Assembly (NCBI GenBank): GCA_028554795.2
Contig: CM068826.1
Coordinates: forward strand, 100,592,846-100,656,845
DNA: 64,000 bases
From: Sinohyriopsis cumingii
Lineage: Eukaryota > Mollusca > Bivalvia > Unionida > Unionidae
Direction: 5' to 3'
Below the pieces are notes generated by a model. The model worked only from the letters and a program-made list of their open reading frames with translations, was not told where the DNA came from and searched no databases. The translations under genes were made by a program, and so were the position numbers. Of the stretch, positions 14,641 to 38,483 are shown one piece after another. Position 1 is the stretch's first letter, and every line of letters starts with the position of its first letter.

Positions 14641-14649
14641 TTCATTAAG

Positions 14650-15150
14650 GAACCAACTATAATACCATTAGAAGTTTATGAGCAGCAAAAACCACATTTA
14701 GGACCAACTAGACATCAAAACCATATGCATAGTTCCATTTACAGCCAACCAGACATCAAATAGGTCATCTAGTGAAAGCACAATGTCAAAATGACCAGCC
14801 ATCTAGGAGAAGTAGCAAGGAAGGGGTTTTCCAGATGCCCATTAAAACAGCCATATTGGAGGTTAGATTGGCACTATTTTCATTTACGTCCAACTAGACA
14901 TAAGAAGTCTTTCACTGATATGACGATTCATTCAGGAGAAGTAGTTATACCAAGATTTTCAGGATGGCCACATTGGTGGCCTTATAGGATGTCTGTACAG
15001 CACCATAATTCTCATTCAGGACCTGCTAGACATCAACATAAGTATTTTGTACACATGTTGACACGCTGACACAATTATCCATTCAGAAGTAGCGATAAAA
15101 AGTTTCTTAATATGGCTACTGTGGCAACCACATTGTATGTGTGAGTGGCA
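14650..15150. repeat. Degenerate minisatellite, period about 140 bp
   Basis: Three diverged units, each with a CATTCAGGAGAAGTAG-like start followed by a TTTTCCAGATGGCCAC-like part (14800-14865, 14930-14990, 15080-15135), separated by CCAACTAGACAT-containing segments. An ORF through part of it is repetitive and not a gene. Confidence 0.6.
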
Positions 15151-16484: not shown

Positions 16485-16805
16485 ATTGTGTGTGTGTGAT
16501 TGGATTTTTAACGTAGCTTGAATAATTTTTCAGTCATATTGCTACGATGTCTGCAGTGTGGCAGTTTATAGTGATGTATAGCACTGGGGCATCATGCTGC
16601 AAACATGTAGTATGATGTTGCACCCAGTCACATTATCCTGACACCAGGCCGATCAGTCCTAACACTAACCTCTTAATGCTGAGCGTCTAGCGAGGTAGCT
16701 GTTAATACCATTTTTGTAAGTCTTTGGTATGACTTGGCTGGGGTTTGAACCCATGACCTCCCGCTTCTGAGGCGGACGCTCTAACCACTAGGACACCGGA
16801 GTGGT
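16485..16805 (-). mobile_element. tRNA-derived SINE, full-length copy
   Basis: Read leftward from about 16805, the head has Pol III promoter boxes: box A within AGTGGTTAGAGCGTCCGCCT and box B GGTTCAAACCC. A body shared with two other copies in this window follows, including GTGTCAGGATAATGTGACTG, and the element ends in a TG-repeat tail near 16490. The conserved body may place it in the MetaSINE-like superfamily; that assignment is from memory and uncertain. Confidence 0.85.
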
Positions 16806-18206
16806 CAGAATGGAATTGTAACAATTACAATGGAAGCAATTTGTATTATGCTTGTTGGGGCATTCCTCACTGATGGCTGTCAGTGACATCATCATGGGAA
16901 TGTGTAACAGCCACATTTTGTAAGAACAAGGTGTAGTTGGTGAACAATACAGACACTTTTCTGCCATTTCCACTGGCATCATCTCATATGATGTTATTTA
17001 AAAAAACTTCCTACAACATACTCACAACATATAAAACCTATATGCAAATCTGATGAAAGCTGCTTGTGTTTCTGAAACACATATTCCATACTGGTGGCAA
17101 GAATGTCCAAATCTACATTACAAAAATGAAAACATTACCATCCATCTAGGAGTTGCAAATGTATGAAATCCTCTTGTTGGGTAGTTTTACTAACAGGCTT
17201 TACAGCAGGGCCTTCCATTAGATTTAAATGTGGCAGGTAAGTTGACAAAGTAGGGTGGGGGGTTGGGGGGACCTACCCCAATGGGGATAATTCATTTTTT
17301 TTTTAAAGTAGCATGGTGTAAAGTAAAAGTAGATGGGCTGATAAGGAATCCACTGAATTTACAGACTAAAGGTTCAGACATTCGTTTTTAAGAGAAAAAT
17401 GAAAGAAGGAAACAATACAACAGATATTTTAATATGACTTTAATGTTTATTTTCTAGATTTAATTAAGATTATGAATCAGAATCAGTCTCCAACTCCACT
17501 GTAAAGTTTATCTATTACTTCTTCTGCTCAGGCACCTGCAAATTAAAACAAAATTGTAATGCTTAAATAAAGTCATATCATCTCAGCACTAGTTACATAT
17601 GCAGAAGTCATGTTAATCAGCATTATAAAAATGTATGAAATTTTCTTCACTGCACTTGTGCTTCCCTTACTATCGTTAAGCCATGATACAAGATAACTTT
17701 GCACTTACTTGTCATTTCTGGCAAGTGGATGGTGCAATCAATTTGCACAAAGATGAATTTATTTCATCCAAATATTTCATGTGAATAAAAATTCCAAATG
17801 GAGGCACTTGTCCGATCAGACAAGATATATGCATATTGTAGTTAGCTGGACTCTAGCTCTGATAGTCCTGGGCAATAGGATAAGCTGATTTTGTTATCAG
17901 TTTAGAAATGCATCCGCTTTGCAAATACTATGCTTTAAAAGACGAAACTGAATCCAATATTGATGAAATAAGAGTCATTTGGATTACCTTGTTTTTTATC
18001 ATTCTGCGTTGGTTGGGTGCATATTTGAGGGTCTCTGATATGGTCTCTTCCATTCCATTTGCCTTTGCTTTGCCATTAGTTTTCAAGCAGGCTTCTGCAT
18101 GAGTAATACAATGTTTTAAAATAAGTTTCACAACAAAGGATGCATTGCATTTTTCTAAATGCCAGCAATAATCAATGGAATATTTTTAAAACATGTACTT
18201 TGAAAT
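16806..18206. other. AT-rich DNA without recognisable genes
   Basis: Nothing supported. A GT/G-rich run lies at 17253-17270. Confidence 0.5.
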
Positions 18207-19172
18207 GTGTCTCAAGTTACTTTATCAATTCATTTAAAAATCTCTGGCAAGTCACATGAAAAACACAATTTAAATCAAGCCATACTTACTTATCAAAGAC
18301 TTTCTCATTCACATCCTTTACCTCACACAATAAATATCAGCAACACCAACATTAAATTCACACAATCAGTACAAAACCTAGGTGTTACTCTGGACAGTAC
18401 TCTCACATTGCACCAACATGTCATGAACATATGCAAGGCTGCGTATCTTGAGCTGAGACCCATCAGCTCCATTCTCAGATATCTTTCAGTTGATGCCACT
18501 AAAACACTTGTGTGTTCATTACTACTTTCAAGACTGGACTATGGTAACTCAATTCTGTCTGGTTCATCTTAATATCTACTGCAGAGACTTCAAAAAGTTC
18601 AAAACATAGCTGCTTGGATCATACTTAGAGTACCACAATCAGAGCACACCTCCCCGCTGCTCTGTACCCAACACTGGCTATCCATTCGATCCAGAATCAA
18701 ACACAACATTAGTTCTCTGTGCTACGTTTCACTGACAGACTCTAGTCCAACATACCTATCCGACCTCACCTATGTGTACACACAAGCAAGATACTTACAC
18801 TCCTCTTCCGACAATCATATACTCATTATTCTCACTATGAAAACAAAGTCACATGGACAGCATTCTTTTGCATACCAGGGCCCAGCAACATGGAATGAAT
18901 TGCCCACTGAACTTAGACACAAAGACGCAGTGATCCCATTCAAGAGTGCTCTCAAAACTACTTATTCTGACTACAAAAACAAACTTAATGACTTAATAAT
19001 GTTAACTACCTTAAATATTCTCAGCATGTTTTTTATGTTTTCTAATTTCATGGTGTTTGTTTTTGTAATCATATCATTGTGTATGTTTTTATGTTGTCTA
19101 ATGTTGCAAAGCGCTTAGAGCTTCTAAAGATTAGGCGCTATACAAAGTCCTCATTATTATTATTATTATATT
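18207..19172 (+). mobile_element. 3' fragment of an L2/CR1-like LINE
   Basis: The remnant of the reverse transcriptase C-terminal region is clear despite stops and frameshifts: VQNLGVTLDSTLTLHQHV, SRLDYGNSILSG, then LLQRLQKVQNIAAW, and a final QHSFAYQGPATWNELPTELR. The copy is 5' truncated and ends with GGCGCTATACAAAGT and a (TTA)n tail at 19155-19172. This 3' end type, a short CGCTATA motif plus microsatellite, is characteristic of L2/CR1-group elements. Not active. Confidence 0.88.
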
Positions 19173-19690
19173 TAGCTTGGATGAATATTTTTTAAATCAG
19201 TGGCCATAACTAAAAAATGGGATTTTGTTTTATGATCATAAAAGTATGTTGGACACCATCCATGATGTACAATGCTGTCTGACATTTCTATGCACCTAAG
19301 GTTTCCATCTCAAATATTAAAGCAAAATGCATACCGAATTTGACAGATTGATGAAAATAAAAAAAAGCCAATGCTTACCATTTGAAAAGAGGCAATTGTC
19401 ACTAGAATATTCTATTCAAAATGATATTAATTTTGGACACAGGGGATACCACCCCCATGTTTTCCTGACTCGTGATATGTCGGCCTATTCTGTGCACAGC
19501 TTTAAAAGATGTAATGTTTATCCATCGAGCTATAGAAATGAAATACATTTACTGTAGACTGTTTCTGTCAGCAGTTAAGTTGAGTAATTAGGTCAGGTTT
19601 ATAGCTAGTTTACAAAATTCAATGTAGAATGCCAATAAATGACAAGATGTATTTTTGCAAACTAAAGTGATCTTGAAAAAAGATTAGTAA
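19173..19690. other. Spacer without recognisable genes
   Basis: One 76-codon + strand ORF (19327-19557) has no family signal and is not called. Confidence 0.4.
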
Positions 19691-19693
19691 AGT

Positions 19694-20164
19694 TTAACAT
19701 TTTATAAAAAATAAGCTATTATGTGGAAAAGAAACAACAATGAAATAGGATGCAATGTGTTTACGTCTAGTTTTGGAAGGTACCGTCTCTAAGGTACCGT
19801 CATAATTGTACCGTAGTTTAATGGGTGGAAAGGCCATTGAAAGGTAAGGGCAGTGCGGAGACCATCGAGTATGTTCCAGAATAGCTGAATCTTTGTAGAT
19901 ACATAGATCCATTCGTAACTTCAGTCCGCAAGCGAAACACTGTACTTCGTATCCCAATCCTGACTCGGGTCCGAAGTAGACAAATCCTGTTCTAGCTAAA
20001 ACATACGAAGAAGGTAATCCTTCCCTATCCGTAGGCCATTTTTGAAACATGTCCAATCGACGGGCACAATCACAATAGTCGGGTAAGAAGACTGGAAAAT
20101 GGTAGGGTTTGAACTTGGAGTTCTCACTGGATTTCTCACTCGATTCTTGCTGCGGCGAAGTCAT
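19694..20164 (-). CDS. BIR-domain (IAP-like) protein
   Basis: 156 residues from ATG 20164. One BIR domain spans about residues 34-110: RRLDMFQKWP, then LARTGFVYFG, then the zinc ligands Cys76, Cys79, His98 and Cys105 (CFACG ... LEHTRWSPHC). The spacing C-x2-C-x18-H-x6-C fits the family. The usual Trp after the second Cys is absent (LRMDL). There is no RING or second BIR in the frame; the tail ends in hydrophobic residues of doubtful origin. BIR proteins block caspases or act in cell division; viral copies delay host cell death. It lies directly downstream of the polymerase and is open although the polymerase is riddled with lesions. Confidence 0.82.
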   Translation of the reverse strand: MTSPQQESSEKSSENSKFKPYHFPVFLPDYCDCARRLDMFQKWPTDREGLPSSYVLARTGFVYFGPESGLGYEVQCFACGLKLRMDLCIYKDSAILEHTRWSPHCPYLSMAFPPIKLRYNYDGTLETVPSKTRRKHIASYFIVVSFPHNSLFFIKC

Positions 20165-20179
20165 CCTTCTGGTGGGTGG

Positions 20180-23100
20180 CTATCCTCTTACAACCAATGT
20201 TTTATACCGACATGTCCATACGGCAAAGTAAAGTGGGTGGGAAGCCGCACTCGCTTCTGCTACACGATTTGATAGACTTTTTCCAAGGGTCGACTGACGA
20301 TGTGGTGTGTGGGTAAACGTACAATCTTGTTGGGTTGATAGGTGGTCACTATCTCTAGACTGCAAGGCTTCTTTCAATATGCCAAAGTTGACCACTCGAC
20401 TGGTACGATAATTCAGAGTAAGTCCTTTCACTTTACACTTCGTGTGCACTTCTCCTTGTTTGGCCCAGTATTCGTAGCCGTAATTTTTGGGACCACCACT
20501 AACGAAACTTAGAATCTTGTCATCGGGGTGCTTGTCTGTCCAGGCTCCTAAACGGTCTCCTTCGATGTCAGGGTGCTGTTGACTCGGGTGATCGATATAA
20601 ATGCAACTGTCCATGTCAAAGTACAAGACACGTTCCCCTAACAGTTCTAAAGCTTCGTACAATTTTAAGCGAGCATGAGCTGTCATGTAAGCTGCAATGA
20701 TGACATTTCCAAAGGGGTCATCTTCTACAAAGTTCAGATCTTCTTCGTAATTCACCAAGATCAAATCCTCACGAACGACGTCCACGTGTTTCATGAATTT
20801 GGCTTTGTCGTGAATCATCTGAAAGTAGCGGGAAGGTTCGGTCAAATACTCCGTCTTGGGTAAACACGGTCATTGTGCCATTTTACCCCACAAGCAATTT
20901 AACATCACTTTGGCAAACGATCGCCTGCCTTCGTTTTTCTCAATGTGATCTGAAGTAATGCCTTCTTGTGCCCAGAATTTCTCTCTGAATGTCTTTTGGT
21001 CTTCGGGAGTGTGACACCAGGACAGATAGCCACTGGCTTCTTGCTCATTTTCAAAAAGGCATCCACGTAGTCTGCGAAAATGCCTTTCTGCGTGGGGTCA
21101 CCCTTGTGGAATTATTGTGTCTTGGGAAAGTGGCAAATTTCGTACACTTCTAACAGTTGGTATCCCATGTTCAGAGCTTCGAACAATTCTACGCTGACCC
21201 ATGTCCCCGTCAAGGCCCGTTCTTCCTGGGTGTGATGACAAGGTTGATCTTGGTTGCACGTTTCAGCACAAGTACGGCACAAAGGAAACATAAGTTTGCT
21301 TTGGCAATGGCGAGGTAAGACGGGATGGTATAGGTTCGTGGGAGGCAAAACTTTGCACTTGATCAAGCCTTCGTATTGTCGAATGTTTTTTAGGTCGATG
21401 TGTTCGGTGAACAATTGTGGGTGCCCTGCAGGAAAGCAACAATATTTGCACACGTAGGGATACAGTGAACACACATCCAAGTATATGATTTCTTCTCCTT
21501 TCTCTTCGTCAGCTTGGTACAGCAAACAGGTGGCATTGGTCCTTCCTCCGTACAAACTATTACTTGGGTTCAGGGGGTCCATGAACTGGTAACTTTCCAT
21601 GAGGCGTTTAAACTCGGGATCGGTGTTCAAACGGTGATTGTATTTGTGTTCCCACATTTCCACCACTTGGTATCCTTCCTGTTCTAACTTTAGGCGTGGC
21701 TGACAAATGGCCTGGTACAAGTCTTCCATGGTTCGTTGTAAGAACTGATTTTTAGTGCCGCGGTCAGGGTAACAGACGGGACATCCGTGAAATAAGCAAC
21801 CGTTAAACTCGTACATGATCTTGGGGTTTTCTAAGTCCCAGCCATTGACCGAATGCATTCCGATGATCTTTCGCCCTGTCCGTTGCGGGCATGCTGAATC
21901 CATTTGTCTTCCTTGTCGCACAAGTAATGCAACCAGCATGGGGCTTTGACCGAGTATTGACGTTTGACATAGTTGGTCGTTTGAGGACTGATGACAGCCA
22001 CAGTGTTTTCAAGCATGAATCGTTGTCGGTAGACTAAGGAACACGCTTTGGCAATGGTGCAAGCCTCTTTTAAATGATCAACCCCTCCGTGTTCCATGAA
22101 CAGTTCTCGAAATTTTCCACAGCATCGCCGTAAAATGTCCATGTCGGAACGACGATACTTTAGCATTTCTTCCTGAAAGTCGAAAGGGTCGGAGGCGTGA
22201 GCCTGGTACCAAGCGTAGAAAGTTTCTCGTTCGGTACGCATGTTGTCAGGGTCGTAATAGTGAGCCTGAGGCAAATGGGGTAGAACGGCGTGTTGATTGG
22301 CTTCTGTATTGAAAAAGTGTGGAAAGTACCCTTTAGCCATTTCTGTCATTCCAAACATTTTAGGCATTCGACTCAAAGGCATGGCTAAGTAGCTCATCGA
22401 ATCTTTAAACTGCACTTGTCCCACTTGCATGAAAATGATTTTGGCTCCGTTCAAAGTGATTTTAGGACGCTCGATGCGACGTTCCGTATAACATCTCAAA
22501 AGAAACTGTCCATCATATCCGGAGAAATTGTGAGCCATCACCGTGGCATGACAATGACAATCTCCATAATAATGTTCGATGTCCTCTTGGCTCCACGTCT
22601 TGTCGATGGGGTCTAAGACCCATTGTGTGAAATCGGCTAGTGTGTTCGGTCCTTGAAAGATTTTTTCATGCCCTCCAGGAATCTTACTGCAGTGAGGGCA
22701 ATAACTCAAGATAGGTTCTTGAATCACTTCTCGCACGCTCGATGAGCCACGCAGAAATTAGGAATGTGAATACTGATCTCTTGCATGCATTCGAAATCGA
22801 AAAAGATGAAATTGCCTTTCTTCTTCTTGTGACCATCCTCTTTCTCTGGTTGGGATTGGTATTTTTGTATGTAGCATTGGTGTTCCAAGTCCACAATGCA
22901 GTGACAAATGTGACATTTTTTCTTTCCTGAACATACGTGTGCCTTGGTACTGTTGATACATAGACCTTGTCCACACATTGGGCACAATCTCAGGAGTTGA
23001 CAAGCACATTTCTTCTGTGAACCTTGCATCTTCAGATGTTGTTGGTAACAGGCAGGGCTGACAAATGTGCGCAGACAAGCAGGACAATGCACTGGTTCTT

Positions 23101-24137
23101 GCCCTTCGCTCAGACAGGGTTGAGAGGCCAAACATCCTGAGCATTTCGATCCACAATGTTTGTGTTGCTCTCGATTATTATAACCATCATAAGTCACATT
23201 TCTCACAGTAATATTTGTATCCCAGGAATCCAGTGATAGTGGTAATGGTATCGAAATGGTCATCGTGATGATAGAGGTGAATGTATTTTCCATCCTTAAA
23301 GTCTTTCCCTCGAAACAACAGAGACCCGCGCACTTCTTGAGGGTGCACTTTCAAGGTGTATCGTGGAGCTAGGGCATCTTGCAATTTTTGCATCTCAGGA
23401 ATGCCACAGGATGTGTCTTTGGACAGGCATGCTTGTTGTAACAGAAGTTCTGCTTCATTTCGTTGTTTGGCTCGGTTCGATTTTCGAATGTTCTCCCAGG
23501 CTCTTTTCCATTCTACCGTGTCGTTCTTGTCGGCATAGGTTCATCCCACCACGATGGCTCGGGCTAAACACATGTGGTCTTGAAAATTGTTAATTTGGAC
23601 AAGACTTGTTTTGGTAATGCGAAGGTTGTTGACCAATAAGGTCTTTCTGCATTGTCCGGTCCCTTGAGGAGGAGAGACGTGGGTCATGTCCAGTGTGGCT
23701 TTTCCATCGGTGATGTCAAACTGGTCATTAGATTGTTGCACGTGTTGAATCTTGTCCATGACTTTGGAAGTGGTCAATTCTGCAGGGCTGCTAAACTCGA
23801 TCCAAACAGGGGATTTCAAGCCGTCATGTTGTATGGAAAGTCTCAAGCGATCATCTTCTTTGGGTTGACATTGTCGCTTGAGTGTGGTGAGCAAAGAATC
23901 CCACATGTCGGTGATGAACCCTTTTGCTTTCTCTAACAGTACTTCAGACTTGAAATCTTTAAACTTCACTGTGTATTTGTAAGCCGTAGTTCTAAATTTT
24001 CTAGAGGGACGCTTTTCCGTCTCTCGAATGTCATAGTACTTTTCAGGGTTGACTAAGGGTGGTAAACTTTGTTTAGAGGGTTTGGATTCTGGTTCACTCA
24101 TGTCCTCTTCAAAATAACTGGCATGAATTTGTGCCAA
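20180..24137 (-). pseudogene. pPolB: Protein-primed family B DNA polymerase, multiply broken
   Basis: All main motifs of a Polinton/adintovirus polymerase are present in order over about 3.96 kb. They are an N-terminal domain ending NFQDHMCLARAIVV, a Cys-rich zinc region, Exo I FFDFE (near 22795), Exo II NFSGYDG (near 22520), Exo III RRSDMDIL (near 22150), motif A LDVCSLYPYV (near 21475), motif B MLNCLWGK (near 20890) and motif C YFDMDSCIY (near 20610). It cannot be read through: TGA stops at 23543-23541 and 20872-20870, and frame changes near 23200, 22735, 21880, 21100 and 20265. There is no good ATG at the start; candidates are 24101, or one further upstream that is followed by a TGA. It would replicate the viral genome from a terminal protein. 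Confidence 0.88.
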
Positions 24138-24271
24138 GACTTCAGCCCTAGTACGAGGCGATAGATCACGTTTCTGCCTCTTACTTTCTTCTTCTTTCTT
24201 CTCAAATGAATTGGATCATTTCATCTCGATAGCAAAAAGTCAAATGACTAAAGTTTAAACACCATGGATTA

Positions 24272-24304
24272 ATTTATAGTCATAGCAGACCAGCGTATAT
24301 AAAG
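24272..24304. promoter_or_regulatory. Divergent TATA boxes between polymerase and zinc-knuckle genes
   Basis: TATATAAAG (24296-24304) points right, 54 bases before the zinc-knuckle ATG. TATAAAT on the minus strand (24278-24272) points towards the polymerase. The intergenic space is short, as in a compact bidirectional viral promoter. Confidence 0.6.
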
Positions 24305-24357
24305 GGTATGTGTCTTGTCCTTTCACTATTCATTTCACTCTCAAACTGAGCACAACA

Positions 24358-24815
24358 ATGGAAGAGACTACCAAGATTGAACGTTTCATCAGAGCTTTGC
24401 GAGGGGTCATTAGAAAATTCTCTTCAGACCAGCCGAGGGACTACTCTCCTTCCTTTCAAGATAAAAGTCAAGATACTTGCTATATCTGTCAGAAGAAAGG
24501 GCATTGGTCTTCAGAGTGTCCAGACCGTCAAAAAAGAAAAAAAAAGGGGTTAGAAGAGACAAAAGTCAAGATACCTGTTATTATTGTCAAGAAAAAGGAC
24601 ATTGGTCACCAGACTGCCCAAAAAAGAAACAAGAGGAGTCAGAAGAAGAGAGGGATTCTTCAGAGGAAGAGGAAGAAGAAGAGGAAGAAAACAGACAGGT
24701 GAAGAAAAAGAAACAGGAGAAGAAAAGAAGGGAAGAAAGTGAGGAGGAAGAGGAGGAAAAGACTATGACGGTGAAGAAATTAAAAAAACAGAGAGTGAAC
24801 AATGAGACAGAATAA
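24358..24815 (+). pseudogene. Two-zinc-knuckle basic/acidic protein, one frameshift
   Basis: From ATG 24358 the frame encodes MEETTKIERFIRALRG and a CCHC knuckle (CYICQKKGHWSSEC). A second, nearly identical knuckle (CYYCQEKGHWSPDC), followed by long Glu/Lys runs and the stop at 24815, is in another frame. Two near-identical segments 98 bases apart show a duplication; 99 would keep frame, so one base has been lost between the knuckles, probably in the A runs at 24530-24545. The CCHC knuckle is the nucleic-acid-binding type of retroviral nucleocapsid and cellular RNA-binding proteins. It is divergent from the polymerase gene. It may be a simple mutation or a slippage site. Confidence 0.7.
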
Positions 24816-24873
24816 GTCTATGAACTTTTTAAAGTGCTCTGTTGTGAATTGTGAATTGTAAATATTTATAAAA

Positions 24874-24879
24874 GAATAA
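24874..24879 (+). terminator. Poly(A) signal of the zinc-knuckle gene
   Basis: AATAAA about 60 bases after the stop at 24815. This gene uses ordinary polyadenylation signals, unlike the neighbouring pair with histone-type ends. Confidence 0.5.
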
Positions 24880-25010
24880 ATTAATTATAAAAGGTAAGTG
24901 TCTTTGGGTTTTGATTTTAAAATAAGAACCTACACTCACGCACACTCATACACAGACAGGTACTATTGGGTAAAATGTTTTTTTTTAGTTATTGGCAATT
25001 GAAAGCCTAT

Positions 25011-25023
25011 CTCTTTTCGAGAG
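25011..25023 (-). promoter_or_regulatory. Histone downstream element-like purine motif (leftward gene)
   Basis: CTCTCGAAAAGAG on the minus strand, beginning about 9 bases after the stem-loop at 25032-25047. The purine core GAAAAGA could pair with the U7 snRNA 5' end. The same motif at the same distance follows the rightward stem-loop. Confidence 0.6.
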
Positions 25024-25031
25024 ACGTGGAT

Positions 25032-25047
25032 GGCCCTGAAAAGGGCC
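25032..25047 (-). terminator. Histone-type 3' stem-loop (leftward gene)
   Basis: Minus strand GGCCCTTTTCAGGGCC: a 6-bp stem and 4-base TTTC loop, preceded by AAAA and followed by ATCCA. It conforms to the metazoan replication-dependent histone mRNA stem-loop consensus (GGYYYU, HHUH, ARRRCC). It lies about 155 bases after the stop of the leftward ORF, within the range for histone 3' UTRs. Confidence 0.8.
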
Positions 25048-25202
25048 TTTTTTGGTGTAAGGGGTGAGTTTAAACAATCAACTTTAACTGTCTTTAGCCT
25101 TTGCCATGGCCAAGGCCTACTTCTGGACTGCGTACTGTTGATGATGATTTCGTTGAAATCACTAAGGATGGTGCAGTAGGCGTAGTCACAGGGTTGGAGT
25201 GT

Positions 25203-25634
25203 TTAGCTTGGGAAGGTCGTATTCTCTTCGGCCGTAATAAAGAAGTCTGATACATCTGTTTCAGACTTCTTAACTAAAATGTCTAACAGTACCGTGACCG
25301 TTTGATTTTGACACCCTTGTTTCTTTGCTGCTGCGTCTTCTTCTTCTTGTTTTTTTCTTACCTCTTCTTCTTGCTGCTGTTGCTGTAGGAGAAAAGCTTG
25401 TTCCGCTTCCTTTTGCTGTTGTATAAATTTCTCCAATTCTTCTTTCTGTCTCTGTCTAAAATTTTCCATGTGCGGTAATGAAGGAGAAGGTGACGAAGGT
25501 TCAGGAACAAATTCTTGCAAGGTAAAAAAATCCACAAAATCCCAATTCACCTCTTCTGAAAGTAAGTCTGGGTTCCCTTGGGTAGTCTCCACCATCAGTG
25601 CACCCAAACTGATCGTTTTCTGAGTTTCCGTCAT
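25203..25634 (-). CDS. Coiled-coil Gln/Glu-rich protein with histone-type 3' end
   Basis: 143 residues from MTETQKTISLGALMV (ATG 25634); an ATG 11 codons upstream is also in frame. The N-terminal part is acidic and hydrophobic (VNWDFVDFFTLQEFVPEP), followed by a strongly helical Gln/Glu/Lys segment (about 62-107, QRQKEELEKFIQQQKEAEQA) like a coiled coil, then LLDILVKKSETDVSDFFI. The ORF is intact. It is not a histone and no family is recognised. It is driven by the leftward half of a bidirectional promoter and ends in a histone-type stem-loop, so cell-cycle-coupled mRNA without a poly(A) tail is the obvious hypothesis. Confidence 0.6.
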   Translation of the reverse strand: MTETQKTISLGALMVETTQGNPDLLSEEVNWDFVDFFTLQEFVPEPSSPSPSLPHMENFRQRQKEELEKFIQQQKEAEQAFLLQQQQQEEEVRKKQEEEDAAAKKQGCQNQTVTVLLDILVKKSETDVSDFFITAEENTTFPS

Positions 25635-25682
25635 GTTGAAAAACTGTCGCTTAGATTGACTACGCACAGGCGCTAGCGAATC

Positions 25683-25809
25683 TATATAGACTATGTGACG
25701 TCACAGACTGCTCTCTTCGGATTGGACGTGGGCTGACTGAATTTTGTAACGCGTGTTTGGATTGGTCAACAAACTCAATCCGTTTCAATCCTTCCTCCCC
25801 CTATAAATA
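25683..25809. promoter_or_regulatory. Bidirectional promoter with CRE, CCAAT and two TATA boxes
   Basis: A leftward TATATA (25683-25688), a perfect CRE palindrome GTGACGTCAC (25695-25704), two inverted CCAAT boxes ATTGG (25721-25725 and 25761-25765) and a rightward TATAAATA (25802-25809). The layout closely resembles the shared promoter of divergent metazoan histone gene pairs. Confidence 0.7.
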
Positions 25810-25854
25810 AGTACAGTTCACTGCATTCCTTCACCTGTTACTCAGCACCCCAAC

Positions 25855-26100
25855 ATGTGGACCGATGTACAATCTTCAACGCTTGTGTCTTCGATGATGT
25901 TCCGGACGGACATATCAATGTATGTCCGATCCAACTGGACAGTTATCCACAGGACAGACACCAGCCTGTGGATGCGAAGAATCTTATGTGGAGCATCAAG
26001 GATGCCTCAAAAGAGTCTTAATCTATGGTCCTGCAGTCAGGCACAGCCTAAGGTCAAGAAGAAGATGTCACAGATGCCCTTTATGTTAAGGGTATATTAA
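25855..26100 (+). CDS. Uncertain small ORF with histone-type 3' end
   Basis: A transcript from the rightward TATA would reach ATG 25855 and an 81-codon ORF ending at 26100 (basic, Met/Ser-rich). The other two frames are also unusually open. One runs to the stop at 26021 and contains IFNACVFDDVPDGHINVCP; the other runs from ATG 25922 to 26089 and ends in a basic Cys-rich tail (LRSRRRCHRCPLC). The real coding frame cannot be decided, and a frameshifted gene using two frames is likely. None resembles a histone. The stop of any version lies 13-90 bases before the stem-loop, as in histone mRNAs. Confidence 0.35.
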   Translation: MWTDVQSSTLVSSMMFRTDISMYVRSNWTVIHRTDTSLWMRRILCGASRMPQKSLNLWSCSQAQPKVKKKMSQMPFMLRVY

Positions 26101-26112
26101 CATAAAACCAAA

Positions 26113-26128
26113 GGCCCTTTTCAGGGCC
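26113..26128 (+). terminator. Histone-type 3' stem-loop (rightward gene)
   Basis: GGCCCTTTTCAGGGCC preceded by ACCAAA and followed by ATTCC: a perfect match to the metazoan histone stem-loop consensus, including the CCAAA flank. A purine element CTCTCGAAAAGAT (26138-26150) begins 9 bases downstream, matching the leftward copy. About 55 bases from the stem-loop to CTTTCAATTGCC are shared between the two 3' ends, in opposite orientation. Confidence 0.82.
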
Positions 26129-26180
26129 ATTCCTATCTCTCGAAAAGATCTTGACTTTCAATTGCCTACCCCTTTTTTTA

Positions 26181-26530
26181 TTTTTTTGTTTAAAAAAATA
26201 ATAAAAAAATAGAGACCCCTCCCTGTTTCAATTTTCGCCTGTTCCATTTTCATAGACCCATCAGGTCGGGACCTTATTAAAATAGGGTCCCGACCCTGTT
26301 CCATTTCCCCTAGTCCCAAGACAGTCCCACGATTTATTCCCCATGTTCAATTTCCCTTGTCCCTAGAGTGAATAGTTTTTTTTCTTTCTCCCATGTTAAA
26401 TTCCCCTTGTCCCTAGAATGGATATTTTTTTTTTTCTCCCATGTTAAATTACATAGTCCCCAGAGTGGATATACCCTTTTTAACATGGAAGTTCCCTAGT
26501 CCCTAGACCGTCCCTATTCACTACTACCAT
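26181..26530. repeat. Hairpin and tandem repeats beyond the viral block
   Basis: A perfect 10-bp inverted repeat GGTCGGGACC / GGTCCCGACC (26264-26273 and 26286-26295, 12-base loop) is followed by four units of roughly 45-55 bases containing CCATGTTAAATTCCCCTTGT and CCCTAGAGTGGATA-like parts (26330-26515), with T-runs between. Function unknown; it may be an end region of the viral block. Confidence 0.65.
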
Positions 26531-27394
26531 TGTCATTACCAGCCTGAAACCAAATTTAATGCCATTTGTATAAATTCATTTCAAATAAATATTATGATAT
26601 AGTTGAAGTGTAAAGTCAAGCAAGTATTCTGTTTGCAGATTTTACATTTTAGATATTATAGTAAAGTCATATTTTCTCTTGTTTAGTAAACTTTATTGCA
26701 ACTGGTTCCAAAATAGTAAATCTTATTTAATGTTCATTCACCAGAATAGGTATTAATACAATCCCGAATTAACTGTATGGTACTAAAATATACCCTGATC
26801 TTGTGTGAGATTGTAATATACAGAACTATACCTCAAGACAACAATAATATATTGAATTTATATTGTATCAAGACTGTCATGGTTATGAACTCCAACTTTA
26901 TTCAGGTTTTTTCATAATAAATGATCATCTTGTGCTATGGTTGAAAAGAAATCAAAGTTCAGTTTAACTCCATTCTCTCCACATTTGTAAGTTGTTAAGA
27001 GGCATACTCATCCTCAGTGTTATAGTAAAATGTAATCTTATTTGGATCAATCTTGGTGGTGTAATATATGAATGGAGAAAGAATATTATCATCCAGATTA
27101 AAATATGTTTTATTCAGACTCTACTAAAATTTTTAGTTGGATATGGGTTACGGAGCCTGATGTGTACGAACAAAGCAATGTGTACCATGACCTTTTTAAT
27201 TTAACGTTTTAAACTCCTGCAGAAGAAAGAGATTTTTTAGATCCATTAATCTGTATTAACAAAAACATTTCTTCAGTATGATTTTCAATTACTTAGTATT
27301 GACAAAACTCATATTTTAAAGTTGTTGTTTTTTTGTGTTTGGTTTGGCCTTTTATGGTAAACCAACACAAGTAAGTTATTTAGTGCCAAGGCAC
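26531..27394. other. AT-rich DNA without recognisable genes
   Basis: Nothing supported on either strand. Confidence 0.5.
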
Positions 27395-27525
27395 TTTAAG
27401 TATAGTGCCTTGCCCAAGGACACACCATGGTAGCTAACCCAGGTTGGTCTGATGGTAGAATTTGAACCTACCTTATTTCACAGGTCCAGAAAGCTAACCA
27501 CTGAGCCACTACAGCTCCCCATCTT
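27395..27525 (-). mobile_element. tRNA-derived SINE fragment, second family
   Basis: Read leftward: a tRNA-like head (GTGGCTCAGTGGTTAGC for box A, GGTTCAAATTCT for a decayed box B), then ACCATGGTGTGTCCTTGGGC and AAGGCACT. The body differs from that of the SINE family at 16485, 48225 and 60990. Confidence 0.7.
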
Positions 27526-29283
27526 ATAGTGGAATGCTGGTATACTTTATGATCAAGAAGGATGGGTTGGGGTATGCATGTTGCATCTGAAAAAAGTGAT
27601 GGAATTTTTGTTTACATAATATTTTAGTCATACAATATGAATCATTTTCTATAGATTTAAGATGTATCAGATCAAGTTAAGAAAAATCATATATTCTGTT
27701 TCCTGGGAATGTACTAAAATTCACTGTTATTGTTTGATTTTTTGGTAGTAAGCTTACTTGGTATTTTTTTCTTTTTAACTTGAATACCTAATTTGTTAAC
27801 ATCCTATTCTAAATCTTCAGAGTTCTGTCTATTAAGTGACAACTGTTGATACATGTAGGGAAGTTTTTGTTTATATCTTTTGATTTTTGTGATTCTGGAA
27901 GTTGCAGTATTTGTTGTTGTATTATAACCATTTCAGTAATTTAATGAATGCAGAGTATACTGCTCTATAAATGAAATTTAAGTGAAAATAATGTAAAAGT
28001 ATGTTTCACTGCAAATATAAATTGTTTAAAATAATATATCATTTATCATATGACTATTCAATTGTGGTAACTAGTATTCCATCCAATATCTATATATTAA
28101 AATATGTCTTTTCATACAGCTGGTGATCATTTAGATACAAGTCCAATTGAACATAATCAAATTATCAATGCAGGTGTTTTTATTAGTAGTAGTATTGCAA
28201 GTATAAGTGTTAGTATTAAGATTTCATATACAGGTATGATAAGTGTATCATAATGTTTAAATGATGCTCCTTGTTACAACATAAAATATGTTCATTGAAA
28301 CAAATGGTTCACTGGTAAATTGGCAGCAAAGGTCTTCACTGAATTATGTTGCATAAACTATTTTACAATAAAACATATATGATGCATCTCAATTATGATG
28401 AATGTGAGGAGAAGGATTAATAATAATGCAATTTAAGTTATCTTCATAACATAAGTTCTAGCAGATGTGTAATTTTTATGTGGTTCATCATCAGTTTGAA
28501 ACTGGTCTGTGATTTCTGGATCTGGACATACCTGGTCCCCTGCTGTTGTGCTGCTATGGTCTTTACAGTTCATTAGGATATCAGTTACACTTGGTTTACA
28601 TTTAGAACCCCATGGGATGGAATGCCCAGTTTGAAACTGAGAGAATGGTTAATTATCCATAATATAACTCCTGCAGTTATTATTAGGTTTGATATCAAGG
28701 TCTTTCTTTAAAAGCTTTTCAACTCAGGTTCTGTTCTACCATACAGATAAATGAAGTCAAATTCAAGGCTTTCAGATTTGTCCAGTTTGTTTCATGTGTT
28801 GCGGCAGACAGACTGTATATTGCCACTGTACCATATAAATATCAGTGCTTAGTCTGCTCTCAGTTGCTGTGGTTTGATTAGTTACAAGTGTCATCACATG
28901 TGACTAATTATTGACCAATGTAATGAAACTTGTATAATTAGAAGGCTGTATTTAAAAACTCTAAAGATCTTAAAAAGAAAATTGGATCGGGGTAAGTAAA
29001 ACCTTTTACTTTGACCATTTGGCTAGAAAATAATTTTCAATAAGTTTAAATTGGATAATAGTAATATAATAATTAATTACACAAATCAGAATAAAAGCTA
29101 TTTGCATATCCCCTTACAGCTGTTGCTTTTTCATAGTACTAAGTAGAATAAAGTATAGTTAAGACAGATAGCTTTAAGCTAGAATTAAACTCAAATAAAT
29201 TGCAAGAAATCAAAACAAACCCAGGATTAAAACTAAAGAAATATCCCGTCATATATACCTTACATCAAATAAAGAAACTCAAG
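27526..29283. other. AT-rich DNA; right part may be the LINE 5' UTR
   Basis: No gene is supported. The last 200-300 bases before 29284 may belong to the LINE that follows, but its 5' end could not be fixed. Confidence 0.45.
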
Positions 29284-30629
29284 ATGGATAACAACAAAAT
29301 TAATGTCACATCATCAAATAGTTATCTCAGCTGCCTGGTCAACCTAAAGGCAGATAAACTAAGGCAAACTTACTCCGAAGCAGTCTCATCCCCCCTAAGA
29401 GAAAAACGACAGATACAGTTCTTAACGCCAATTTTCAACTCGACCCCAACTGACTCGATGAGTAGACTCTACCTGTCACCAAGCGTAAACGAGAATGTGG
29501 ACAATCTACCGAGTAACCGCAAAACTACATCCGACATGAGTACCCAAACTGAGGAACAATACTCAACAAGCACAAAAACAACCCAGACCACGCTGGTTAA
29601 AAACACTAGCAGCCAGGGGACTCAAACTGAGAACCTACTAGATGAAACAGAACGCCCTCACCCTACCACAAATAAAGCAGTCACACACGACTCAACAAAA
29701 GGTAAGAATAATAGGAAAACCAAATCCCAAATACCAGTTAGAAAGAATAAGGAACACACTAACTGTCAGAATACAAGACCCAGCAAGCCGGTTATGGAAA
29801 CAAAGTCAGCTAAAGAGACAAACACCAGGGGAAAAAAGACCAGTCTGCAAAATATCCAAAACAAGAAACACCCCGCTGAACTGACTCTCTTCATCAAGGG
29901 AGTAAATTCCAAAATAACGAAGTTAGCCTTTAAAACCATAGCATGGCAATTGAACAAACATCACCAAGGAGAATTCACGCTTAAAAGCACTAGAGACGAC
30001 TTGCTGATAATCAAATGCACCACTGAACAACAGATTGCCAAATATATGGAAATTGAAAGAATAGGCCAAATAAATGTTCAGGTCACTAGACACAACAGAA
30101 CAAAACAACACATAGACCCAAACCCCCCAAAAACACACAACAAAGGAGTCATATACGTATCAACTCAAAATAAAACCAATGAAATAGTAGACTACATAAG
30201 GAGTAAAGGACAGGAAGTAGAGAAAGCAATCCGCCTAAAAACAAGAAGGGGAAAGGATAGCACTGCAGTGGTACTCTTTTTTAAGGGCGCCACCCCAGAA
30301 ACTATCAAAATAGCCGAAAAACTCGAGGCTAAAAAATTTTTGCTTTCAAAAACAAACCACGGTTCTGTGGCAACTGCAAAAATTGGGGGCATTACTCTAA
30401 GAGTTGCGGAAACCTATTCCGGTGCAATCAATGTGGTCTTCACCACCCAGACCGGAAAACATGTAGCGCCACCAATCAGCACTGCGCTAACTGTAGTGGT
30501 AACCACAAACCAAACCACGCAGAATGCCCCAGGGCTCTTAGAGAAGCCCTAATAGTCGAATATATGATCTCCCATGGGGTAAACTATAAGCAGGCCAAAA
30601 CAAAAATCAGGATACCAAAAACAAAATAA
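29284..30629 (+). pseudogene. LINE ORF1 (gag-like) with C-terminal zinc knuckles, frameshifted
   Basis: From ATG 29284 the frame encodes a Thr/Gln/Lys-rich N-terminal part and an RRM-like middle (LTLFIKGVNSKITKLAFKTI). Near 30340-30355 the reading frame changes by one base; in the new frame are three CCHC knuckles (CGNCKNWGHYSKSC, CNQCGLHHPDRKTC, CANCSGNHKPNHAEC) and a stop at 30629. ORF1 proteins of this type bind the element RNA. A single-base loss in the AAAAAATTTTTGCTTTC stretch explains the break. Confidence 0.82.
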
Positions 30630-30716
30630 ATAGGTAGCACCCTCACTGGTAGGAAACACGCATAAAACGAAAACAACAGTAAATTAAACAAACTATTAAG
30701 ACTTTTTGCACTAGAG

Positions 30717-33700
30717 ATGGATTCCAGAGCAGAAATCAAAATATGGCAATGGAATGCATGCGGCCTTAGGGCCCACGCTGACCAACTAAATAACAAAATA
30801 CTTGAACAGGAAAGAAAACCAGATGTTATATGCATACAGGAAACCCACCTAAATGATACCTCACGTATCCCAAACATCATAGGCTACAACACCAAATACC
30901 TAAAGCATCGATCCCCCACAGCAAGAGGAGGGGGGTTAGCAACCTTTGTTAGAGATGGAATTACATCAGAAATGCATAAATTAACAGATAGTAGACCGCC
31001 CAATGACTTCGAAATACAGATAGTCAAAATAACCGCTCAAACTAAGCAGGTACTAATCGTTAACCTCTATGAAACAAATGAGCAGCGCAATTTAAGTGCA
31101 GACGAAACAATCAAAATGATTAAAGACTGTGGAGAATGGGTGGTAATATGCGGGGACTTCAATGCGCACAATGAACTATGGGGGAGTCAAAAGACGGACA
31201 TTAAAGGAAAAATTGTTGAAAAATGGGCACAAAAATGCAACTTAGTTTTTCTAAACAACGGAATGCACACCCGGATAGATGACAGAACAGGCCACACATC
31301 AGCAATAGACCTATCTCTATGCACACCAAGATTAACAGGCATTTCTGATTGGCAAGTTGATGAAAGCGACCCTATGGGAAGTGACCATTACCTTATAAAT
31401 ATAGAAATACAAATTAGAATACCTCAAAATAAAGCGTCCTTCACACCAAGATGGAAATACGAACAGGCCAACTGGATTAGGTTCAAACAGATAGGTGACT
31501 CAATCGACCCAGAAACCATATATCACCGGGACATTGACACCTTTAATGACAAATTAATAGAAACCATTAACACAATGGCCCAAGAAACAATTCCTAAAAC
31601 TAAAGGAGTAGCACCCAAACCCACGGTGCCCTGGTGGAATAATGAATGTAAAATAGCAATTAAAGAGAAAAAAAGAGCTCTAAACAAATTCAAAAGAACT
31701 AAAAATAATAGGGACTTTAACTACTACAAGGAAAAGGAAAAAACTGCCAAACAAACTATTATGATAGCTAAACAAAACTCATGGAGAGAATTCTGCTCAA
31801 AACTAGATATTAACACAAAATCGAAGGAGGTGTGGCAAAGAATTAAAAAAATGAGAGGCAAAACTAAATCAATAACCCCCAACATACCTGGACAAAACAA
31901 CAAACATAAGGCAGAATTATTCGCAAACTATTTCGCCAACATGTGTAGCAATACCAACTTAGAGGATAAGTTTAAAAATCATAAAAGGCAATTTGAGGAA
32001 AGCAACTCTGACAACATAAAGGAAGCAGGAAATAATGACGGCCCACTAAACCTTCCGTTTACAGAAGCCGAATGGAGAAAGGCCCTCGCCGGCAAAAAGA
32101 CCACATCCCCCGGGGAGGATACTTTGGGGTATGAAATGTACAAGAACCTACCCAAAAAACTTGTCACAATTGCACTTAACCTCATTAATAAAATATGGGA
32201 AACCGGTACCATACCTATAAGATGGAAAAAGGCAGTAGTGGTCCCGATTCTTAAGCCTGGAAAACCCTCAAGCGATATAAAATCATACAGGCCCATATCA
32301 CTAACAGACAATATATGTAAAATAATGGAAACTATGGTAAACAACAGGCTGAAATACCATTTAGAAAGCAAAGGACTATTAGCTAATACACAGAGCGGGT
32401 TTCGCAACTACCGAAGCACAATAGACCAACTCATGAGACTAGAAACCGCTGTCAAATTAGCATCTAGAGAAAAATTTTAAAAATCCAGATATGTTACAGC
32501 CATCTTCTTAGACATGGAAAAAGCATATGATCTAATGTGGACTAAGGGACTGATAAGTAAACTTAAACCATACAGAATAACTGGCAATATATACAAATTT
32601 ATTGCTAACTTCCTAACCGATAGAAAGATACAAGTCAGACTAGGACAAGACTACTCCGAACGATACAAACTGGAAAATGGCACGCCACAATGAAGCGTAA
32701 TCAGCCCAACTTTATTTAATATAATGATAAACGACCTGGAAACAGCGGTAAAACCCAACCACCTTGACTTATCCCAATTCGCCGTATGGAAAACTGGCAA
32801 CCCAGCCAGCAGAGAAACGACCAAGCACTTACAAAAAGGACTAAACGATATAGGAAATTGGACAGATAAATGGGGATTTAAATTGTCACCTCTAAAAACA
32901 GTAGGCATAGTTTTCAATCCGGGAGGTGGCCACCCCCCACCCACTCCAAACTTAACCCTAAAGGGGGTACCCATCAAATTCGAAAAACAAGCGACACTCC
33001 TAGATATGGTATTCGACCACGAACTCACGTGGGCAGCTCATATCCAAGAACTCGTAACGAAGTGCAAACGAGACATCAACCTCCACAGAAACCTCAGAGG
33101 GGTGAATTGGGGGGTTGATCAAAAAACACTCGTTACCCTATATAAAGCACTTATAAGAGCAAAATTGGACTACGGTTGCCAGGTATATGGAGCGGCGAAC
33201 GCCACGTTACTAAAGAAACTAGACACAGTCCAATCAAAAGCGCTAAGGGTATGCACCGGCGTCCTAAATGGTACCCCCACACAAGATATCTTAATAATAG
33301 TAGGAGAACCCCCGCTAGACCTAAGGCGGAAGGAATTGATGCTGCGATACTCGACTCGAATATCAATACACCAACCCAACCACCTCACGCTACAAGCCCT
33401 CTTAGCATGCGACAAACCATTCGATACAAAAGGAAAAAATAAAAAAATACCTAGTGGGAAAATAATTATAGAATTAAAAAGGAAATTTCAAATCGCAAAT
33501 ATCAACCCAGAAAAAATAAGGTACTACCCAGACCCCCCGTGGACCTGTCCCACACCACAAATAGATCTTAGCTTACGTAAACTAGGACAAAAACAAAATG
33601 ACCCGATAGGACTAAGAGCATCAATACTAACGTACATTGACAACAAATACGAGACATACACGCAAATCTTCGCAGATGGATCAAAAACCAAAAATCCAAA

Positions 33701-34528
33701 TAAAACTGCAGCAGGGATAGTGATCCCAAAATTAGATGTCGCCGTTGGAAAAAGACTCCCAGACCAATGCGCTATATACACGGTAGAATTCATGGCAATA
33801 CTAATGGCATTAACATACGTCAAAACATACCCCACAACTAAGGCAGTCATTCTAAGCGACTCTTACAGTGTACTACAATCGTTAGCAACAGACCAATCCA
33901 AGAGCAGACCTAATATGATTAATCATGCAAGATCGCTACTTAAAGAGATTGAAAAAAACAACAAACACGTTGAATTCGTATGGATACCCTCTCACATCCA
34001 TAATCCCAGGCAATGACAAAGCAGATGCAGAAGCAAAAAACGCCACAAACGAACCAAAAGCCCAAAATATAGCATACAGCGTCACTGAAATCAATAACAT
34101 GGGACAAGATCAATGACATGTGGCAAGAGCTATGGGAAAAATCGGATGCAAACAGTCTAATACACACGATGATGAAAAAAGTAAGTAGAAAAGTCGAAAG
34201 TCCGACCTTCAAAAATCCATACGATATAACAATAATAAATAGAATAAGAACAGGTAAAACACTATTGGCAGGATGCGCAGGGAAACACATAAAAAGGGGA
34301 CCAACCGAAAACTGCCCCTACTGCCCAACTCCAGAAACAATCGCACACTTAATAAATATATGCCCCAAATACAACCAGGAAAGGGCCGAACTAAAATCTC
34401 AACAGGAACAAATAGGAGAACGGTGGACATACCCGGAGTTACTTGTGGCAAAAAACAATAACATAGGAATGACCTATAATAACATCATGACATTCATTAA
34501 CAAAATAGGCAAAAGGGGACAAATCTAA
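30717..34528 (+). pseudogene. LINE ORF2: endonuclease, reverse transcriptase, RNase H
   Basis: APE endonuclease motifs come first (IWQWNACGL, CIQETHL, GDFNAHNELWGS, SDHYLINI). Reverse transcriptase motifs follow (PILKPGKPSSDIKSYRPIS, then FLDMEKAYD), then RNase H (FADGSKTKNP, VEFMAILMAL, ILSDSYS, PGNDKADAEAK) and a C-terminal CCHC (CPYCPTPETIAHLINICP). Lesions: TAA 32478-32480, TGA 32691-32693 (in the GTPQG motif), and frame changes near 33995 and 34100. The catalytic FADD box is gone: the sequence reads QFAVWKTGN (32775-32801) where DD should follow FA. The reverse transcriptase could not work even if the stops were read through. Confidence 0.9.
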
Positions 34529-34616
34529 ACCGAATGAAGGGTTGGGTATAAAGAGAGACCATGTAAAGAAATTAAAACCAATAAACCTAAAAGATCGAAC
34601 CAAAAAAGAAAAAAAC

Positions 34617-35050
34617 CAATCAAAATATTACAAATCACTGTTTGGGAATTGTGACGGCCGGCTCGGGCTAGTGGGTTCACAGACTGACACCGCCGCTCAT
34701 AACCCGAACAATAAAAACCAGATAAGGACGAATATTACAAAATCACTGTTTTGGAATTATAATGGCATGCTAGGCCCCGTAGGTTCAAAAAAAAAAAAAA
34801 AAAAAAAAGAAAAAAAGGAAAAAAAAAAAAAAAACAAAAAACAAAAATAAAAATATTAAAAAGTAAATCAAAGACCAGTCAAAATATTACAAATCACTGT
34901 TTGGGAATTGTGACGGCCAGCTCGGTATCGTGGGTTCACAGACTGGCACAGCCGATCATAACCCGAACAATAAAAACCAGATAAGGACAAAATATTACAA
35001 AATCACTGTTTCGGAATTATAACGGCATGCTAGGTCCCGTAGGATCAAAA
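34617..35050 (+). repeat. Duplicated LINE 3' UTR
   Basis: A unit of about 170 bases (ATTACAAATCACTGTTTGGG, then GTGACGGCC, TTCACAGACTG and ACCCGAACAATAAAAACCAG) occurs twice (34625-34787 and 34885-35047), each ending in a long A-rich run. Within each unit the ATTACAAAATCACTGTTT..GGAATT motif is itself repeated, giving four half-units. Confidence 0.8.
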
Positions 35051-38000: not shown

Positions 38001-38483
38001 AAAAAACTCAACTAATCTTATACATGATCACATGTATATACTTGGATTTTGCTCATTATTAGATTTATCCAAGATGTTGATTTAAGCCCAAAACCAAGTT
38101 TTATATAAACAAATTGATCAGAACTATGGACTCCAAAGTAACTAATTTCTTACTGTTGAAAGACAGAAGGGGATGTGAAATAAATAACACACTCTGGACC
38201 ATTACATAAACCCACTTAGCCTTTTGACCAGTTGAGATAAAATATCAACAATAATGTTAAATAAGATTGATAAATTATGTTTTCTCACATTACCTCTAGC
38301 CCTTTTCAACATGGATGGTATTTTTCTTCCACATATGTCAGCTCTTAATTAGTGGCCCTTTCCCATCATGAATGTTGTAGGTGAAACTCTCAGAATTAGG
38401 CTTTTTAATTTATATCTGTAGAAGAAAAAAACTATTGGTCTGCATATATCAATGTCACCATTTCTGTATTAGATTAAAATACC

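What the first reader, a model, noticed from the sequence alone, without database searches (positions are those of the whole stretch)
25011..26150. Two non-histone genes of a viral block end in histone mRNA stem-loops
Both ends of a divergent gene pair carry GGCCCTTTTCAGGGCC in the correct orientation, with A-rich 5' flanks and a CTCTCGAAAAGA purine element 9 bases downstream: the full signal for U7-dependent, tail-less histone mRNA 3' ends. The space between has CRE, two CCAAT and two TATA boxes, as in divergent histone pairs, yet neither ORF is a histone. Either a virus captured a histone-pair chassis to express its own genes in S phase, or a host histone pair was gutted and refilled. I know of no described Polinton-group element doing this.
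Basis: partly seen in the sequence, partly recalled or inferred. Interest (0 to 1): 0.87.

Follow-up and report, generated by a model that had tools for sequence, protein, structure and literature searches.

The report
Virus genes with histone-type mRNA ends
A virus-like DNA family in an animal genome ends several of its own, non-histone genes with the stem-loop signal that animals use for histone messages, which suggests that it borrows the histone RNA machinery to make messages without a poly(A) tail.

Summary
Two identical GGCCCTTTTCAGGGCC hairpins face outward at 25047-25032(-) and 26113-26128(+); Rfam Histone3 gives 35.2 and 33.5 bits (gathering 34), each with AAAAG at +14. The host's H3 and H4 genes, elsewhere, share the stem and AAAAGA at +14. 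Neither ORF here is a histone. The block lies beside viral-type PolB, CCHC and BIR genes and has at least 40 near-identical copies, so it is no gutted host pair. I opened 68 of 75 listed Histone3 hits: all 68 are genes of this element family. Five protein types carry the signal; the four tested show purifying selection (median dN/dS 0.13-0.46). Partner genes not chosen by the hairpin carry it too: 8 of 8 and 15 of 20, some with compensated A-U pairs. Best reading: a PolB-bearing, virus-like DNA lineage uses SLBP/U7 processing for several of its genes. Tail-less RNA and S-phase expression are inferred; the U7 search did not complete; no capsid or integrase was found in the ORFs scanned. Ten literature searches, with capped listings, showed no precedent.

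The parts
25032..25047 (-). histone-type 3' stem-loop of the left gene
   Evidence: Rfam RF00032 35.2 bits over 25007-25052; fold; one per strand in 20 of 20 young copies read, the window's own included
25012..25023 (-). CTCTCGAAAAGA downstream element (U7-type), AAAAG at +14 from the stem
   Evidence: host H3 and H4 have AAAAGA at the same +14
25203..25634 (-). left ORF, 143 aa; shorter version of a 190-aa protein of relatives (acidic N-terminus, coiled middle, basic C-terminus)
   Evidence: 150 of 150 scored genome hits cover all 143 aa, 149 without stops; 19 metagenome homologues of the 190-aa form, 56-91% identity
25094..25255 (-). separate 53-aa frame that resembles the C-terminal part of the relatives' 190-aa protein; the left gene is thus broken or truncated in this copy
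25635..25854 (.). divergent promoter region: TATATA 25683, CRE 25696, ATTGG/CCAAT 25721 and 25761, TATAAATA 25802
   Evidence: 85-92% identical among four diverged copies, against 76-85% for the small ORF and 91-96% for the N-part of the large ORF
25855..26100 (+). right ORF, 81 aa; relatives have an open 76-77-aa frame (MWTTVESST...) with another C-terminus
   Evidence: median dN/dS 0.13 among 23 relatives; two metagenome homologues, 82-83%
26113..26128 (+). histone-type 3' stem-loop of the right gene
   Evidence: 33.5 bits over 26108-26153; fold
26137..26148 (+). CTCTCGAAAAGA downstream element (U7-type), AAAAG at +14
24994..25050 (.). left arm of the 57-nt inverted repeat that holds stem-loop, downstream element and TTTCAATTGCC
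26110..26166 (.). right arm of the same inverted repeat
24358..24702 (+). CCHC zinc-knuckle gene beside the pair, also beside it in relative L003
   Evidence: Pfam zf-CCHC 1.5e-06, L003 1.3e-11
20180..24101 (-). region of a viral/organellar-type DNA polymerase B gene, in several frames (not intact)
   Evidence: DNA_pol_B_2 1.9e-16 and 7.8e-13 for 21112-21939 and 21831-22538; 90-92% DNA match to PolB arms around L003
19694..20164 (-). BIR (inhibitor of apoptosis) gene
   Evidence: Pfam BIR 2.1e-12
9661..64000 (.). ~55-kb amplified unit carrying the block, between (TA)n tracts; its right end lies past the window, at about window-equivalent 64.8 kb
   Evidence: sampled comparison of the C3 and C7 copies; 22-bp terminal inverted repeat, 86%

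Best explanation
A lineage of PolB-bearing, virus-like DNA elements has taken up the animal histone 3'-end signal and uses it on several of its own non-histone genes. As RNA, each hairpin would be bound by SLBP, the AAAAGAGAT-type element would pair with U7 snRNA, and the transcript would be cut just past the hairpin, giving messages without a poly(A) tail, made chiefly in S phase, when the element's DNA could also be copied. Shown by sequence: complete signals in the right orientation and register, the same register as the host's own H3 and H4, on five protein types, kept in diverged copies and in partner genes not chosen by the hairpin. Inferred: SLBP/U7 processing, absence of poly(A), S-phase timing, and that the carrier is or was an infectious virus. 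The copy in this window is a partly decayed example carried along in a young, highly amplified unit of about 55 kb.
For: Both hairpins. Host H3 and H4 share the stem and the +14 element; host stop-to-stem is 28 nt (H3) and 27 nt (H4), against 18-25 nt in 15 of 20 element loci. 68 of 68 opened Histone3 hits (of 75 listed) are element genes. Partner genes not selected by the hairpin: 8 of 8 with 44 of 48 pairs kept, 4 of 8 with a compensated A-T outer pair (two of the eight were located by eye); 12 of 14 class I and 3 of 6 class II. AAAAG at +14 in 60 of 60 selected loci; AAAAGA at +14 in 14 of 15 and at +15 in 1 of 15 partner genes. Coding constraint: median dN/dS 0.13 (77 aa), 0.46 (190 aa, C-part), 0.21 and 0.27 (two class II types). 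Metagenome relatives; the frames of P0023 and P0009 read on through residues that fit the hairpin. PolB, CCHC and BIR beside the pair here and in L003.
Against: No RNA evidence. The U7 search (RF00066) was asked eleven times (first, last) and never answered. One of the two window hairpins is just under Rfam's gathering score. The 68 opened hits were chosen by the hairpin model, whose 46 positions reach into the downstream element; one search scored 75 of 589,472 candidates and lists no host H3/H4 hairpin, so it is no census. In one search, 5 of 20 partner stretches show no hairpin within two mismatches in the expected orientation. In L002 the small gene's hairpin is followed by an A-run and no AAAAG element, and that gene's downstream region aligns at only 58-80% among four copies. 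The window copy's two ORFs are shifted relative to relatives. No capsid or integrase was found in the ORFs scanned, and class II loci were not tied to viral genes. Selection on the 190-aa gene is weak at the divergence available (0.41-0.70 in five pairs).
Confidence: 0.77

Rival explanations
1. The hairpins are a relict or hitchhiking 3' cassette: once copied from a histone gene and spread by recombination, no longer used, with transcripts ending at ordinary poly(A) sites downstream.
For: A stretch of about 57-95 nt around the signal, including TTTCAATTGCC past it, recurs on unrelated genes, as a copied cassette would. AATAAA-type motifs lie 87 and 163 nt past the start of the right hairpin. 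In L002 one downstream element is degenerate.
Against: Compensated A-U pairs occur; stop-to-stem spacing is 18-25 nt in 15 of 20 loci; the downstream element keeps the host's +14 register. On the left gene's strand there is no AATAAA or ATTAAA in the 740 nt searched, which reach about 130 nt past the hairpin.
Confidence: 0.12
2. A host histone gene pair was gutted and refilled at this site.
For: Divergent promoter with TATA, CCAAT and CRE, and histone-type ends at both sides.
Against: At least 40 near-identical dispersed copies of the block; viral-type neighbours; host histones are in ~8.3-kb tandem arrays, and DNA similarity to three such loci is limited to about 40 nt of the signal plus short weak matches.
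Confidence: 0.02
3. The hairpins act as DNA: recombination, inversion or replication sites of the element, not RNA signals.
For: The pair is flanked by inverted repeats and sits in the opposite orientation between two PolB arms in L003.
Against: In the loci read the hairpins lie in sense orientation at gene 3' ends, with oriented flanks and a +14 element; class II genes are in tandem, not inverted; the host uses the same signal on H3 and H4.
Confidence: 0.04
4. The signal is real and used, but the carrier is a transposon or host gene family rather than a virus; the PolB, BIR and CCHC genes are neighbours by chance or by capture.
For: No capsid or integrase in the 18 of 22 unit ORFs of 100 aa or more that were given to Pfam or in the L102/L103 ORFs given to it; PolB frames are broken; the young unit behaves as a large mobile element with 22-bp inverted ends in (TA)n.
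Against: PolB, CCHC and BIR recur beside the pair in L003 at 84-92% DNA identity to the window; homologues appear on separate metagenome contigs.
Confidence: 0.2

Closest known systems
Replication-dependent histone mRNA 3' end (Rfam RF00032; SLBP and U7 snRNP)
   Same: 6-bp stem with 4-nt loop, A-rich 5' side, purine element at +14 as in the host's own H3 and H4, short stop-to-stem distance
   Different: carried by five non-histone protein types of a virus-like element; loop TTTC where host H3/H4 have TTTT; U7 pairing and RNA ends untested
Adintoviruses / Polinton-Maverick group (as described in PMC11071296, passages read)
   Same: PolB of viral/organellar type; zinc-finger proteins
   Different: no capsid or integrase found with it in the ORFs scanned; 'stem-loop' has 0 occurrences in the main text of PMC11071296
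Histoid genes of adomaviruses and tailtomaviruses (PMC11071296, passages)
   Same: animal-associated DNA viruses with a histone connection
   Different: there the protein is histone-like; here only the mRNA end is

Membership tests
histone-type 3' end (RF00032) | score at or above Rfam gathering 34 | tested here: inconclusive
   left 35.2 met, right 33.5 just under; the 75 listed genome hits are over it
histone-type 3' end (RF00032) | 6-bp stem, 4-nt pyrimidine-rich loop, A-rich 5' flank | tested here: met
histone-type 3' end (RF00032) | purine element at the host's spacing | tested here: met
   AAAAG at +14 on both window genes; host H3 and H4 have AAAAGA at +14
histone-type 3' end (RF00032) | pairing with host U7 snRNA | not tested
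   RF00066 search of the genome did not complete
histone-type 3' end (RF00032) | mRNA ends just past the stem without poly(A) | not testable with these tools
   no RNA data here
replication-dependent histone gene | encodes a histone | tested here: not met
   no Pfam histone for window and relatives' ORFs; no histone match by tblastn in the 40 loci tested
adintovirus | type B DNA polymerase of the viral kind | tested here: met
   DNA_pol_B_2 in pieces of the window and of L102/L103
adintovirus | OTU-like domain at the PolB N-terminus | tested here: inconclusive
   no OTU match in Pfam for the N-terminal pieces; Pfam may miss it
adintovirus | hexon (double jelly-roll) capsid protein | tested here: inconclusive
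   none among the unit ORFs scanned (18 of 22 of 100 aa or more); the DJR gene at 576-1970 lies outside the amplified unit
adintovirus | retrovirus-like integrase with chromodomain | tested here: inconclusive
   none in the ORFs scanned; not every ORF and no whole relative was scanned

The most novel reading that the evidence does not exclude
An animal DNA virus lineage has put five of its own gene types under the histone mRNA regime: tail-less, SLBP-bound messages made by U7 processing, timed to S phase and destroyed when replication stops. These would be non-histone protein-coding messages in animals with histone-type ends, and a viral way to couple its genes to host DNA replication without poly(A).
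Probability: 0.6. Interest if true: 0.93.

Novelty: new variant of a known kind. Interest (0 to 1): 0.86.

Why it matters
[quoted passage not shown] I saw the start of its abstract). If these element genes are processed the same way, that rule has an exception, and one present in many copies. It would be a viral route to S-phase-coupled expression, would explain why such transcripts are missed by poly(A) libraries, and would give natural non-histone substrates for SLBP and U7. It is directly testable with existing RNA methods.

Tried and rejected
Gutted host histone pair: rejected after the host histone arrays were found. Chance hairpins: rejected. DJR capsid block at 134-5421 as part of the same unit: rejected, because the C7 copy diverges at the (TA)n near 9600. 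Relatives in viral contigs: a profile scan with A1 confirmed none, and two hairpin patterns found none. Pfam on the element proteins: no match over a curated cut-off, apart from the CCHC, BIR and PolB genes. Structure prediction never ran.

Literature: ten searches of an open-licence library. I saw the listings, which are capped (for instance 20 of 4,454 papers), and abstract starts; passages only of PMC11071296 (12 of 23 places) and PMC6210712. Nothing in these listings describes viral or other non-histone genes with histone-type 3' ends. The adintovirus founding paper was not held. In the clam of PMC6210712 all histone mRNAs had the stem-loop but purine elements were seen in only four (passage).

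Full report
WHAT IS THERE. Two perfect GGCCCTTTTCAGGGCC hairpins lie at 25032-25047(-) and 26113-26128(+), the only two matches in 64 kb even with three mismatches allowed; 2 of 100 shuffles had two or more such matches. A Markov null gives 0.028 consensus hairpins per window; 5 of 1969 simulated windows had two or more, none with a purine element. Rfam Histone3 scores 35.2 bits on the left and 33.5 on the right, just under the gathering score of 34. Both fold as a 6-bp stem with a 4-nt loop. Each has an A-rich 5' flank, CTCTCGAAAAGA from the ninth base on and AAAAG at +14. They sit in a 57-nt inverted repeat. Between them are two outward ORFs and a 220-bp promoter region with two TATA motifs, a CRE and two CCAAT boxes.

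HOST CONTROL. The window lies in an unnamed 2.9-Gb genome, G000. Its histone genes form tandem arrays with a period of about 8.3 kb (150 of 662 candidates scored). In the three loci read, H3 and H4 each end in GGCCCTTTTTAGGGCC, followed by AAAAGA at +14 (the H4 offset of 3 printed is an earlier AAAAG in ACAAAAAGAAC, and AAAAGA itself is at +14 in the printed sequence). Stop-to-stem is 28 nt for H3 (the value 252 came from a wrong frame) and 27 nt for H4. So the element's 3' signal has the host's stem and the host's register, with one loop difference. DNA similarity between element and these loci is confined to about 40 nt of the signal, with otherwise only short weak matches. The H3 and H4 seen are in tandem, so a divergent histone chassis is not shown; I did not see host H2A or H2B.

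THE SIGNAL IS A FAMILY FEATURE. A genome search with Histone3 listed 75 hits over the cut-off (of 14 control genomes one gave a match, under the cut-off). It scored only 75 of 589,472 first candidates and lists no host H3/H4 hairpin, so it is no census. I opened 68 of the 75: L001-L008, L082-L101 and L124-L163. All 68 are genes of this element family. The histone tblastn was run on 40 of them and found none; the other 28 were assigned by ORF and DNA match. Class I loci have the divergent pair (190 aa and 76-77 aa). Class II loci have tandem genes, a 94-150-aa protein and then one of two lysine/glutamate-rich proteins, each followed by its own hairpin. In the 20 loci the stop-to-stem distance is 18-25 nt in 15 and 43-95 nt in 5, where frames look shifted.

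UNSELECTED SAMPLES. Because those hits were picked by the hairpin, I looked at partner genes that were not. In L001-L008, 8 of 8 partners have the hairpin (six found by pattern, two located by eye), with 44 of 48 pairs kept and four with a compensated A-T outer pair. For 20 further loci I fetched 501 nt at the expected partner site: 12 of 14 class I have it within two mismatches in the expected orientation; L106 has one in the opposite orientation and L110 none. Class II: 3 of 6; from neighbouring motifs the other three stretches seem to start just past the site (my reading, not computed). Random 501-nt stretches of the window mostly give 6-8 mismatches (1845 of 2000). AAAAGA follows at +14 in 14 of the 15 partners with a hairpin and at +15 in one. 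In the 60 selected loci L082-L101 and L124-L163 AAAAG is at +14 in 60 of 60, while positions just before it vary more; the Rfam model reaches into this part, so that count is not free of selection. Against: in L002 the small gene's hairpin is followed by an A-run without the element, and among four copies the region past that gene's hairpin aligns at only 58-80%.

THE GENES ARE REAL. Median pairwise dN/dS is 0.13 for the 77-aa gene (23 sequences), 0.46 for the C-part of the 190-aa gene (19), 0.21 (10) and 0.27 (7) for the two class II types. The 190-aa value rests on low divergence, and five earlier pairs gave 0.41-0.70. The 190-aa protein has 19 metagenome homologues at 56-91% identity, a class II protein two at 53-56%, the 77-aa protein two at 82-83%. 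P0022 and P0008 have the same source label and contig length, 1455, so may be the pair on one contig. The frames of P0023 and P0009 read on into residues that fit the hairpin and its downstream element; by my back-reading the P0009 version would carry one stem mismatch. No Pfam family fits these proteins over its cut-off. In the window copy both genes are shifted in frame relative to relatives; this copy is partly decayed.

PROMOTER. The intergenic region is 85-92% identical among window, L002, L003 and L007. That is more than the small ORF (76-85%) but less than the N-part of the large ORF (91-96%), so it is not exceptional. L002 has lost one TATA and L003 one base of the CRE.

THE CARRIER. 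Beside the pair lie a CCHC gene, a PolB region in several frames and a BIR gene. L003, 84-87% identical at the pair, has the pair between two PolB arms facing away from each other, with CCHC and BIR genes. Forty full-length copies of the 1.18-kb block were scored, all rounding to 100%, from 7128 candidates; 20 of them, the window's own included, match over 4.2 kb at 99.4-100%. The window copy belongs to a unit of about 55 kb, from about 9661 to window-equivalent 64.8 kb, between (TA)n tracts with a 22-bp inverted end at 86%. This extent rests on sampled comparison of two copies, with six copies compared to about 37 kb on the right. 150 of 150 scored hits of the 143-aa protein are full length, 149 without a stop. 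Adintovirus membership is not established: no capsid or integrase was found in the ORFs scanned (18 of 22 unit ORFs of 100 aa or more), and the DJR capsid gene at 576-1970 lies outside the unit.

HOW IT PROBABLY WORKS. Inferred from the known histone pathway (recalled; also abstract starts of PMC9756948 and PMC6303110): SLBP binds the hairpin, U7 snRNP the AAAAGAGAT-type element, and the message is cut just past the stem without poly(A). For a DNA element this would couple expression to S phase and make RNA that needs no poly(A) tail. A 3' cassette of about 57-95 nt shared by unrelated genes suggests one capture, then spread among the element's genes. None of these steps is shown here. The U7 search was asked eleven times and not answered (listed in Tried and rejected).

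NOVELTY. Ten literature searches of an open-licence library, with capped listings, showed no viral or other non-histone gene with this 3' end; subscription journals are mostly missing there. The mechanism is known, these users of it are not, so I call it a new variant of a known kind.

Noticed in passing
window 9661 to beyond 64000: A ~55-kb mobile unit with near-identical copies, 22-bp inverted ends with TGGGCAG-type repeats, inserted in (TA)n tracts; it holds a LINE-like block (29284-34016) and a 562-aa ORF without Pfam match. What moves it is unknown.
   Followed up: partly
window 134-5421: Seven open frames including a double jelly-roll capsid protein and a weak adenovirus-type protease match: a second, separate virus-like insertion left of the unit.
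   Followed up: partly
L102, L003, L103: Head-to-head arrangement: two PolB/CCHC/BIR arms, 94-97% alike, around one stem-loop gene pair, as in a dimer or long inverted repeat; the pair is inverted relative to the window.
   Followed up: partly
L124 and L125 (C8, 9.7 kb apart): Two stem-loop genes of the same subfamily in the same orientation 9.7 kb apart, perhaps a local tandem copy.
   Followed up: no
window 26308-26514: Repeats of the type CATGTTCAATTCCCCTTGTCCCTAGA downstream of the right hairpin, also downstream of class II hairpins (L004): perhaps the element's terminal region.
   Followed up: no
window 7303-9265: An HNH endonuclease gene (8768-9265) and a 165-aa ORF without clear family beside the capsid block.
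   Followed up: no
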